From the NCBI GenBank assembly GCA_900317555.1, contig ONHF01000001.1, positions 114,467-178,466 of the forward strand: a DNA stretch of 64,000 bases, in the 5' to 3' direction. Below the pieces are notes generated by a model. That model did not search any database, was not told the origin of the DNA, and saw only the letters and a list, made by a program, of their open reading frames with translations. Shown here piece by piece: positions 50,712-53,975 of this stretch; the stretch's first letter is position 1, and each line of letters begins with the position of its first letter. Origin of the DNA: an uncultured Lachnospiraceae bacterium (lineage in GTDB: Bacteria > Bacillota > Clostridia > Lachnospirales > Lachnospiraceae). The position numbers were made by a program, and so were the translations under genes.

Positions 50712-52544
50712 TTGAATAACGATACTAGAAATACCGGCCGCCTGATTGCCGGTGTCGTCGTTCTGGTGCTGTTTCTGGCTATGCTCCAGTTCGCGCGAAC
50801 TTCATTCTCAAATCAGGAAACGCCCTACACGCTGGAAACCTTTGAACAGGATCTTTCCAAGGGGCGCGTTGATAAAGTGGAAATTGTGCCGAACAGCGAA
50901 ACACCGACCGGCTCCGCGAACATTACACTGAAGGACGGAACCGTCAAGGTACTGTACGCGACGGACATCACGAAGGTGGAGAAGACCGTGCGGGAAGACG
51001 GAATCTCACCGGTTGTCAGGGATGTGCCGCGGGAAAGCTGGTTTATGACCAGTATTCTGCCGGTGCTGCTTGTGGCGGTGATCTGCTTCTTTTTCTTCTA
51101 CATTATGAACGCGCAGGCAATGGGAGGCGGCGCCAACGCGAAAATGATGGATTTCGGCAAGAGCCGCGCCGTGCGTGCGTCCTCCAAGGACAGAGTTACG
51201 TTCGCGGATGTCGCAGGCCTTAAAGAAGAAAAGGAAGATCTGCAGGAGATCGTTGATTTTCTGAAAGATCCCGGTAAATACACAAAACTCGGTGCGCGTA
51301 TCCCCAAGGGCGTCCTTCTGGAGGGGCCGCCCGGCACCGGAAAGACATTACTTGCCAAAGCTGTTGCCGGTGAAGCCGGCGTGCCGTTCTTTTCGATTTC
51401 CGGTTCGGACTTTGTCGAGATGTTCGTCGGTGTCGGCGCATCCCGCGTGCGGGACATGTTCGAGGAAGCCAAGAAGAACGCGCCGTGCATTGTTTTTATT
51501 GATGAGATCGACGCTGTCGCCAGAAGAAGAGGTACCGGCCTCGGCGGCGGCCATGACGAGCGGGAACAGACGCTCAACCAGCTGCTGGTTGAGATGGACG
51601 GCTTCGGTGTGAATGAAGGCATCATTGTCATGGCGGCAACAAACCGTGCGGATATTCTGGATCCCGCGATTCTGCGGCCCGGCCGTTTTGACCGGAAAGT
51701 TGCGGTTTCCCGCCCGGATGTCAAAGGCAGGGAGGAGATCTTAAAGGTACACGCGAAGAACAAGCCGCTTGGAGACGATGTCAATCTGGAAGAAATTGCG
51801 AGAACGACAGCCGGCTTTTCCGGTGCGGATCTCGAGAACCTCCTGAACGAGGCAGCGATCGACGCTGCAAAGGAAAACCGCGCATATATCATTCAGGCGG
51901 ATATTCAGAAGGCGTTTATCAAAGTCGGCATCGGTACGGAGAAGAAAAGCCATATCATTTCCGAGGAGGAAAAGCGCATTACCGCTTATCATGAAAGCGG
52001 GCACGCGATTCTGTTCCACGAGCTGAAGGATATCGGTCCGGTCTACACGGTATCGATCATTCCGACCGGCGCAGGAGCAGCAGGATATACGATGCCGCTG
52101 CCCGGCAAGGACGAAATGTTCATGACCAGAGGCCGTATGCTGCATGAGATCATGGTGGATTTCGGAGGCCGCATTGCAGAGGAACTGGTTCTTGACGATA
52201 TTACAACCGGCGCTTCAAACGATATTCAGAAGGCAACGTCCATGGCTTACCAGATGGTAACCAAATACGGTATGTCTTCGGAAATCGGAACGATCAACTA
52301 TTCGACGCAGGAAGAGGATGTCTTCCTCGGCTATGACCTCGGTCATGAAAAGCGCAACAGCGAGTATATCGCGGGCGAGATTGACAAGGAAGTCCGCAGA
52401 ATCATTGAAAGCTGCTATCAGGACGCGCGGGAGATCATCCTGAAGCATGAAGATGTGCTGCACGCAAGCGCCAGACTTCTGATGGAAAAGGAAAAGATCT
52501 CGGGGCAGGAATTTGACGCGCTGTTTGCACAAGGCTCCTGCTGA
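50712..52544 (+). CDS. ftsH: ATP-dependent zinc metalloprotease FtsH
   Basis: FtsH degrades membrane and short-lived cytoplasmic proteins. The 610-residue protein has two N-terminal membrane segments around an extracytoplasmic domain, Walker [14 protein letters not shown], Walker [12 protein letters not shown], the SRH region [17 protein letters not shown] and the zinc motif HESGH (His427, Glu428, His431). The start is a TTG at 50712 with AAGGAG six bases upstream. The first 96 bases after the stop are A/T-rich without gene or terminator, then the ncRNA promoter begins. Confidence 0.97.
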
Positions 52545-52605: not shown

Positions 52606-52634
52606 TTGCTCGCAAAAGAGGAGTTTGCTATTAT
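52606..52634 (+). promoter_or_regulatory. Promoter of the C-rich RNA
   Basis: TTGCTC (52606-52611), a 17-base spacer and TATTAT (52629-52634) preceded by TGC, an extended -10 element. Transcription is expected to start near 52641. Confidence 0.55.
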
Positions 52635-52640
52635 ACTAAG

Positions 52641-52787
52641 CGTAACCCCCCAATACATTTATATAAGTTTTTGCTATACCCCAATTAAGAAGTGCTCCGG
52701 AAACAGCTTCCCCAAGTGCTGTTTTCAGTAAGGAACAACTTCTACCCCATTGCAGGAATGTGTCCCCCAACACATTCCTGTTTTTTT
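52641..52787 (+). ncRNA. Candidate small RNA with five CCCC motifs, between ftsH and fba
   Basis: No open reading frame with a ribosome binding site is present, but the stretch has a promoter, regular structure and a strong terminator. C-runs lie at 52646-52651, 52679-52682, 52710-52713, 52745-52748 and 52764-52768, each followed by AA or AT. The third is in the loop of GAAACAGC-TTCCCCAAGT-GCTGTTTTC; the fifth is in the loop of the terminator; AGAAGT/ACTTCT can close a central domain. AUACAUU near 52653 could also pair with the left terminator arm. The layout resembles Firmicutes sRNAs with exposed C-rich loops that pair with Shine-Dalgarno sequences (LhrC, RsaE classes). A regulated fba leader is the alternative. 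Confidence 0.55.
52753..52787 (+). terminator. Strong terminator of the C-rich RNA
   Basis: CAGGAATGTGT and ACACATTCCTG form a perfect 11-bp stem, loop CCCCCA, followed by seven Ts. Confidence 0.93.
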
Positions 52788-52934: not shown

Positions 52935-53873
52935 ATGCCCATTGTTACAAGTACAGAACTTTTCAAGAAAGCTTATGACGGCGGTTACGCTATCGGTGCT
53001 TTCAACATCAACAACATGGAAATCGTTCAGGGAATCACCGACGCGGCGGCAGAGCTGAAGAGCCCTGTTATTCTGCAGGCTTCCCAGGGCGCGAGAAAGT
53101 ACGCGAATTCCGTATATCTTGTAAAGCTGGTTGAGGCGGCTTCCGAACTGCATCCGGAACTTCCGATCGTCCTTCATCTGGATCACGGCGCGGATTTCGA
53201 GACTTGCAAGGACTGCGTTGACAACGGGTTTACTTCTGTCATGATCGATTATTCCGGCCATCCGTTCGCCGAGAATATCGAGGTTTCCAGAAAGGTTGCG
53301 GAGTATGCGCATGCGCACGGCGTCGTTGTAGAGGCTGAGCTCGGTACACTGGCAGGACAGGAAGACGCTGTTTCCGTAGAGGCGGATAAGGCTTTCTACA
53401 CACATCCGGAGGAAGTTGAGGAATTCGTAGAGAAGACCGGCGTTGATTCCCTCGCAATTGCAATCGGAACATCGCACGGCGCTTACAAGTTCAAACCCGG
53501 CACAAAGCCGCAGCTTCGTCTTGATATTCTTGATGAAGTCGCGAAGAGACTTCCGGGCTTCCCGATCGTTCTGCACGGCTCTTCTTCGGTTCCGCAGGAA
53601 TATGTCAAGATCATCAACGAGAACGGCGGCAAGCTGATTGACGCAATCGGCGTTCCGGAAGATCAGCTTCGTGAAGCGGCAAGACGCGCGGTCTGCAAGA
53701 TCAATATCGATTCCGACCTTCGTCTTGGCATGACGGCTGGCATCCGCAAGCATTTTGTGGAGCATCCGGATCATTTCGATCCCCGTCAGTATCTGGGCGA
53801 TGGCCGCGCGAATGTCAAGGCTATTGTCGAGCACAAGATTAAAGACGTTCTTGGTTCCGACAACAAGATCTGA
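52935..53873 (+). CDS. fba: Fructose-bisphosphate aldolase, class II
   Basis: This zinc-dependent glycolytic aldolase of 312 residues has the metal/active-site motif LHLDHGADFETCKDCVDNGF, VEAELGTLAGQEDAV, AIGTSHGAYKF and VLHGSSSVP. AGGTGG lies eight bases before ATG 52935; the GTG at 52923 is rejected. It is expressed from its own promoter and ends in a strong terminator. It feeds the same central carbon flow as the PTS genes downstream. Confidence 0.96.
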   Translation: MPIVTSTELFKKAYDGGYAIGAFNINNMEIVQGITDAAAELKSPVILQASQGARKYANSVYLVKLVEAASELHPELPIVLHLDHGADFETCKDCVDNGFTSVMIDYSGHPFAENIEVSRKVAEYAHAHGVVVEAELGTLAGQEDAVSVEADKAFYTHPEEVEEFVEKTGVDSLAIAIGTSHGAYKFKPGTKPQLRLDILDEVAKRLPGFPIVLHGSSSVPQEYVKIINENGGKLIDAIGVPEDQLREAARRAVCKINIDSDLRLGMTAGIRKHFVEHPDHFDPRQYLGDGRANVKAIVEHKIKDVLGSDNKI

Positions 53874-53909: not shown

Positions 53910-53932
53910 TGCGCGGTAACGTAATCATAAAG

Positions 53933-53975
53933 AGCGTCCGCGCCGGTATGAAAATTACCGGTGCGGACGCTTTTT
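53933..53975 (+). terminator. Terminator of fba
   Basis: AGCGTCCGCGCCGGTA and TACCGGTGCGGACGCT form a 16-bp stem with one mismatch, followed by TTTTT. Confidence 0.93.

What the first reader, a model, noticed from the sequence alone, without database searches (positions are those of the whole stretch)
52641..52787. Candidate C-rich-loop small RNA between ftsH and fba
A 147-base stretch with no credible gene has an extended -10 promoter, a perfect 11-bp terminator and five runs of four to six Cs, each followed by AA or AT. The first four are spaced 31-35 bases apart. At least two C-runs are in hairpin loops, including the terminator loop. Known Firmicutes sRNAs with several exposed C-rich loops (LhrC, RsaE/RoxS) block Shine-Dalgarno sequences. 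A/U-rich pairing between AUACAUU at the 5' end and the left terminator arm could add conditional termination. This may be an undescribed multi-site regulator or a sensor leader for fba.
Basis: partly seen in the sequence, partly recalled or inferred. Interest (0 to 1): 0.75.

Follow-up and report, generated by a model that had tools for sequence, protein, structure and literature searches.

The report
New C-rich Lachnospiraceae small RNA
Just after the ftsH gene lies a small-RNA gene that belongs to a strongly conserved Lachnospiraceae family missing from the public RNA-family library; its C-rich start probably pairs with ribosome-binding sites of some mRNAs, perhaps those of sugar-use genes, and lowers their translation.

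Summary
In detail: promoter-like site, five C-runs and a terminator in 147 nt. It marks an RNA gene conserved across one bacterial family, taken to be Lachnospiraceae: 132 of 200 family genomes match, usually 85-396 nt after ftsH on the same strand (28 of the 30 best-scoring loci, window included). Rfam 15 has no family for it. Aligned members are 88-100 nt: a conserved, G-poor, mostly unpaired 5' part and a covarying terminator. The window's copy is an enlarged 147-nt variant with extra C-runs. It is not an fba leader. Most likely it is a trans-acting antisense RNA that covers Shine-Dalgarno regions. Moderate support: the number of As before the C-run differs by lineage, and matching complements before ATG differ with it (odds ratio 2.46, permutation p 0.0017; backwards control 1.12). 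Against: the two candidate targets checked are not conserved, GUAAC genomes show no excess over the backwards control, one of three sampled genomes gave no clear signal, and relatedness was not modelled. A sugar-gene role is a hypothesis. No expression data were available.

The parts
52606..52634 (+). Promoter-like site: TTGCTC, 17 nt, extended -10 TGCTATTAT
   Evidence: Sequence; an extended -10 pattern TGnTAnnnT lies in the last 35 nt before the C-run in 73 of 88 distinct family copies
52641..52787 (+). Small RNA gene, enlarged 147-nt member; start inferred near GUAAC (52642), end in the terminator T-run
   Evidence: Conserved in 132 of 200 family genomes; model hit 51.7 bits in this genome; transcript not observed
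52642..52660 (+). Module A: 5' GUAACCCCCCAAUACAUUU, proposed seed
   Evidence: Most conserved part; complements of its 5' side over-represented in start regions of this genome
52670..52689 (+). Module B: second C-run, UUUGCUAUACCCCAAUUAAG
   Evidence: Conserved as CUAYACCCCAUAA; no clear target enrichment
52688..52743 (+). Hairpin with CUUCCCCAAG-type loop (third C-run), replaces AAUACCUUCUC of typical members
   Evidence: Minimum-free-energy fold; present in the window and its close relative L031
52745..52748 (+). Fourth C-run, unpaired, CUUCUACCCCAUUG
   Evidence: window and L031 only among the members printed
52752..52787 (+). Intrinsic terminator with CCCCC loop (fifth C-run) and T-run
   Evidence: the terminator hairpin covaries in the family, 8 of 8 pairs

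Best explanation
The window holds one gene of a family of small non-coding RNAs that, as far as tested, belongs to Lachnospiraceae and usually sits just after ftsH. It has its own promoter-like site and terminator. Its 5' part is G-poor, C-rich and mostly unpaired, so the C-runs stay free. It most likely acts in trans: the 5' GUAA(A)nCCCC seed pairs with mRNAs whose Shine-Dalgarno region reads GGGG(T)nAC just before the start codon and lowers their translation. Likely targets include some carbohydrate-use genes. Shown here: the gene, its conservation, its usual place and the lack of an Rfam entry. Inferred: the transcript and its start, the pairing, the direction of the effect and the role.
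For: 132 of 200 family genomes match, 110 of 200 hold an exact 5' motif, 29 of 41 in the genus. Conserved sequence with a covarying terminator. Reciprocal test over 43 GUAAC and 18 GUAAAAAC genomes: odds ratio 2.46, label permutation p 0.0017; without the two discovery genomes 2.10, p 0.0076; backwards controls 1.12 and 1.04. Sites lie before GH94, GH78, GH43 and MOFRL genes. Known C-rich Firmicutes sRNAs block Shine-Dalgarno sites (passages).
Against: The GH94 and lipoprotein sites of G000 recur only in one sister genome among 30 and 10 homologous loci. Module B shows no clear enrichment and G440 none for its own seed. GGGGTTAC..ATG sites in GUAAC genomes do not exceed their backwards control (356 against 341), and these genomes do not differ from 21 genomes without a hit in the first form of the test (p 0.22). 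Measured against the control odds ratio, the permutation p is 0.032, and 0.061 without G000 and G102. Genome relatedness was not modelled. No test of functional enrichment was made. No expression data.
Confidence: 0.6

Rival explanations
1. The RNA acts mainly by binding a protein: its unstructured, C-rich, G-poor stretch with the conserved CAAUACAU and AAUACCUUCUC segments is a binding array or decoy, for example for an RNA-binding protein or for Rho.
For: Conservation of whole stretches beyond the C-runs; 16 C and 5 G in a 60-nt consensus 5' part; no conserved long complement elsewhere: many listed ATGTATTGGGG places are the RNA gene itself and counts are otherwise near those of the backwards control.
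Against: The reciprocal seed-target test points to pairing; the over-represented complements sit at the 5' seed and at start regions.
Confidence: 0.2
2. The element is a cis-acting leader or attenuator for the next gene (fba here, a GH13 alpha-amylase-type gene in many relatives).
For: Same strand as the next gene in many loci; a gene of one GH13-type cluster is next in 48 of 93 loci (three related proteins tested, all Pfam Alpha-amylase, one of them from a locus without the RNA).
Against: The downstream gene differs among lineages while the RNA stays the same; it ends in a terminator; it is inverted in L033 (L125 is the same contig); extra copies lie away from ftsH (L009, L024, L123); fba has its own promoter-like site.
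Confidence: 0.07
3. It is only the 3' UTR and terminator region of ftsH: an RNA made by read-through and processing, without a regulatory role.
For: It follows ftsH on the same strand in 28 of 30 best-scoring loci; no RNA-seq was available.
Against: Conserved extended -10 at a fixed place (73 of 88 copies); conservation drops outside the RNA; tandem copies in L062 and copies away from ftsH; inverted in L033.
Confidence: 0.08

Closest known systems
LhrC of Listeria monocytogenes (passages of PMC4132741 seen)
   Same: G-poor, several C-rich sites in loops, linker and terminator loop, multicopy, blocks the Shine-Dalgarno region of a target; UCCC motifs occur in two loops of the window RNA.
   Different: Typical members here carry ACCCC in linear stretches and have no stable stem-loop except the terminator; no Rfam match; other taxon and neighbourhood; no target proven.
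RoxS/RsaE and FsrA of Bacillales (passages of PMC8216469 seen)
   Same: C-rich regions serve as target-binding sites; RoxS and FsrA target central-metabolism transcripts.
   Different: No Rfam match; linear 5' seed with a lineage-dependent number of As before the C-run.
Clostridiales-1 RNA (Rfam RF01699)
   Same: Another unexplained sRNA family in the same bacteria; one copy lies next to a family member in L018.
   Different: Separate sequence; no overlap with the RNA.

Membership tests
Any Rfam 15 family | Covariance-model match at or above the gathering score | tested here: not met
   Window, 20 homologous loci with E up to 5, 7 loci at gathering score: nothing at the RNA; one search gave only sub-threshold eukaryotic snoRNA matches (best E 0.75)
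C-rich Firmicutes sRNAs (as a functional kind) | Discrete transcript with own promoter and terminator | not testable with these tools
   Promoter-like site and terminator present and conserved; no expression data
C-rich Firmicutes sRNAs (as a functional kind) | Several accessible C-rich sites | tested here: met
   Five C-runs, two in loops and three unpaired in the predicted fold; two or more C4+ runs in the first 60 nt of 63 of 65 distinct members
C-rich Firmicutes sRNAs (as a functional kind) | Pairing with Shine-Dalgarno regions of targets | tested here: inconclusive
   Reciprocal seed-target test positive; target conservation, module B and G440 negative or unclear
LhrC | Two stem-loops with UCCC in loop A, linker and terminator loop | tested here: not met
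   Only the terminator helix covaries in the family; the other two tested helices have no pair changed on both sides
fba leader | Conserved position upstream of fba | tested here: not met
   fba (over 50% identity) was found near the RNA only in the window, L031-L038 and L042 (not all of them) and same-genus loci; the constant neighbour is ftsH

The most novel reading that the evidence does not exclude
A Lachnospiraceae-wide carbohydrate regulator RNA in which the register of the seed itself, the number of As between the 5' GU and the C-run (2, 3, 4 or 5), has shifted between lineages together with the Shine-Dalgarno regions of its targets, so that whole regulons were retuned by single-base length changes at the 5' end of one RNA.
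Probability: 0.3. Interest if true: 0.8.

Novelty: new member of a known kind. Interest (0 to 1): 0.62.

Why it matters
Lachnospiraceae are major fermenters of gut and rumen (general knowledge), and the listings of three text searches that named the group or its members (two searches showed only 25 of 254 and 12 of 520 papers) held no paper on an sRNA of theirs. A conserved, easily recognised RNA gene at a fixed place after ftsH gives an entry point with a candidate seed, candidate targets and a lineage test. It also illustrates a class that structure-based searches may miss: linear RNAs conserved in sequence, with only a terminator to covary.

Tried and rejected
fba leader and 5'/terminator switch: rejected. 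Small ORF: no shared frame seen. A conserved internal fold beyond the terminator: helix 26-30/40-44 and helix 52-56/70-74 have no pair changed on both sides; some lineages (for example L062, L063, L093) fold a different hairpin with CCCC in its loop. GH94 and the lipoprotein as conserved targets: not conserved. Long complement of CCCCAAUACAU as a conserved target: not supported. GGGGTTTTT without AC as the type-3 target: T0 against T3 p 0.005, T0 against no-hit genomes p 0.22; replaced by the full complement GGGTTTTTAC after I had seen two such hits in G102. The hairpin loop of the window copy: 9-mers over-represented in start regions (8 against 2.5, 7 of 200 shuffles) but not 8- or 10-mers, and 4 in mid-gene controls; not pursued. 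Module A 8-mers are not over-represented (147 of 300 shuffles reach the count). L122 (39.8 bits, another family of the class) judged chance; L121 (40.4 bits, same order) a plausible distant relative from CCCCATAAAAATACCTTCTC plus terminator. Literature by five sequence strings: no paper; by words: no listed title or abstract start names this RNA. Only listings were seen, apart from passages of two papers.

Limits and rows dropped. Members were found by blastn with the window's core and then anchored on C4+AA or C4+AATACAT, so those letters are conserved partly by selection; L061 reads AATATAT. From the alignment left out the window copy and L031 (enlarged), L002, L013 and L028 (wrong terminator end), L057, duplicates and three members without a terminator in reach. 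The model hits at ftsH loci include the sequences it was built from. Start regions come from a simple ORF caller that favours strong Shine-Dalgarno sites. Types were read from the capped list and from fetched loci; GUAAAC, GUAAAAC and ambiguous genomes were left out of the 43 + 18 comparison. GGGGTTAC counts were not cleaned; 4 of 101 fetched copies match that pattern on their own antisense strand. The 21 no-hit genomes are part of the 68.

Full report
What is there. Between ftsH (50712-52544) and fba (start at 52935) the window carries TTGCTC-17-TATTAT with an extended -10, five runs of four to six Cs, and a terminator of 12 pairs (11 perfect, one G-U at the base) with a T-run. The stretch folds 5.6 standard deviations better than dinucleotide shuffles. 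Such a cluster of C-runs is rare: 7 of 244,416 windows in 856 kb of the same genome, both strands, have five or more; 4 are this place and 3 are one place antisense to a coding gene.

It is a conserved RNA gene. A blastn search with 201 nt matched 132 of 200 genomes of the same family, each from another genus; 110 of 200 hold an exact 5' motif. With a model built from 59 members, 12 of 291 genomes of the class matched, 10 of them, the own genome included, in the same family; of the other two, L121 looks like a distant relative and L122 like chance. In the genus 29 of 41 genomes matched. Of 80 ftsH loci fetched by protein, 48 have a model hit at E below 1e-5 and one more a hit cut off by the contig end; many of these sequences helped to build the model, and some loci end soon after ftsH. 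Roseburia faecis, Eisenbergiella porci and Oliverpabstia intestinalis are among the named carriers.

Anatomy of the family. The alignment of 59 members of 88-100 nt shows three conserved stretches, CCCC(C)CAATACAT, CTAYACCC(C)AT and AATACCTTCTC, and a terminator. All 8 terminator pairs have changes on both sides; for the whole structure tested, 41 cells change on both sides against 9.3 in shuffles; the two other helices have no such pair. In 88 distinct copies anchored on C4+AATACAT, the mean frequency of the commonest base is 0.41 at -40 to -20 before the C-run and 0.72 to 0.97 at the five positions after AATACAT; C-run 1 has 4 to 9 Cs. Two or more C-runs stand in the first 60 nt of 63 of 65 distinct members; three or more runs in 22 of 65. 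The window and L031 have, in place of the third stretch, a larger hairpin with a CCCC loop and a further C-run, giving 147 and 152 nt. Some genomes have several copies: three tandem ones in L062 and several places in G051, G159, G067, G046 and G119.

Neighbourhood. In 28 of the 30 best-scoring loci (the window is one of them) the RNA begins 85-396 nt after the end of the FtsH match on the same strand; the exceptions L009 and L024 come from genomes with further copies. A gene of one cluster is next in 48 of 93 loci; two of its members tested are Alpha-amylase-type proteins, and so is the gene after ftsH in L081, where no RNA was found. So the order ftsH - amylase exists without the RNA and says little about function. 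fba is near the RNA only in the window's clade.

Is it known? Rfam 15 has no match at the RNA in the window (only sub-threshold snoRNA matches), in 20 homologous loci at a permissive threshold or in 7 loci at gathering score. Five sequence strings occur in no paper of the library; seven word searches list no paper that names it (long lists were capped). The library lacks most subscription journals and preprints, so an earlier description cannot be excluded.

How it may work. C-rich sRNAs of Firmicutes block Shine-Dalgarno sites (passages of PMC4132741 and PMC8216469). In 732 crudely called start regions of the window's genome the complement of the RNA's 5' end stands out: GGGGTTAC occurs 9 times in the sample and 4 of these are in start regions; after allowing for the excess of G-runs there, 0.37 are expected (p 6e-4, uncorrected, looked at after the first hits). 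Two start regions have perfect 11-nt matches to the first 27 nt (2 of 300 shuffles reach this; 8-nt matches show no excess): a GH94 phosphorylase and a lipoprotein without Pfam match.

The 5' end differs by lineage: GUAAC, GUAAAC, GUAAAAC, GUAAAAAC. I noted beforehand that targets should follow (there as GGGGGTTTTT). In G102 (GUAAAAAC) both GGGTTTTTAC sites of 800 kb lie in start regions, before a GH78 rhamnosidase and a Gfo/Idh/MocA protein. In G440 (GUAAAC, with a second GUAAC copy) one GGGGGTTTAC lies before a GH43 gene, which is not significant by count, and no GGGTTAC lies in a start region. Over 43 GUAAC and 18 GUAAAAAC genomes the counts of GGGGTTAC..ATG and GGGTTTTTAC..ATG are 356/49 and 115/39: odds ratio 2.46, label permutation p 0.0017; without G000 and G102 2.10, p 0.0076; the same patterns read backwards give 1.12 and 1.04. 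For the difference to the control, p is 0.032 and 0.061. With three further possible self matches removed the ratios are 2.27 and 1.90. Relatedness of the genomes was not modelled.

Results against. The GH94 and lipoprotein sites are kept only in one sister genome, G490. Module B shows no clear enrichment in any of the three genomes, and G440 gives no clear signal. In GUAAC genomes GGGGTTAC..ATG does not exceed its backwards control (356 against 341), and these genomes do not differ from 21 no-hit genomes in the first form of the test. Not all sites are at sugar genes: in G000 the GGGTTAC sites also precede a lactate-racemase-type gene, a metallophosphoesterase-like gene (by eye) and an AraC-type gene whose start call is doubtful. 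I made no enrichment test for function.

Verdict. A real, so far uncatalogued RNA family (about 0.9 in my judgement), which works most likely like the C-rich sRNAs of Firmicutes (0.6) but is not a member of a catalogued family tested here. The carbohydrate role is a hypothesis.

Noticed in passing
upstream of the RNA in relatives, e.g. L018, L023, L026, L062, L077: A TTTGTGnA[CG]A element near the -35 position (typically GTTTGTGCACACTT) in 33 of 88 distinct copies, absent from the window copy by eye; possibly an operator.
   Followed up: no
L121:1400-1640 (minus strand): Plausible distant relative in another family of the same order: CCCCATAAAAATACCTTCTC followed by a terminator; no FtsH match within the 3-kb locus.
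   Followed up: partly
L062:5887-6398: Three tandem copies of the RNA after ftsH, each with its own terminator.
   Followed up: partly
L018:1724-1948 (minus strand): A Clostridiales-1 RNA (RF01699, 93 bits) about 100 nt beyond a family member.
   Followed up: no
   Followed up: no
window 53929-53975: Very strong 20-pair terminator-like hairpin shortly after fba.
   Followed up: no
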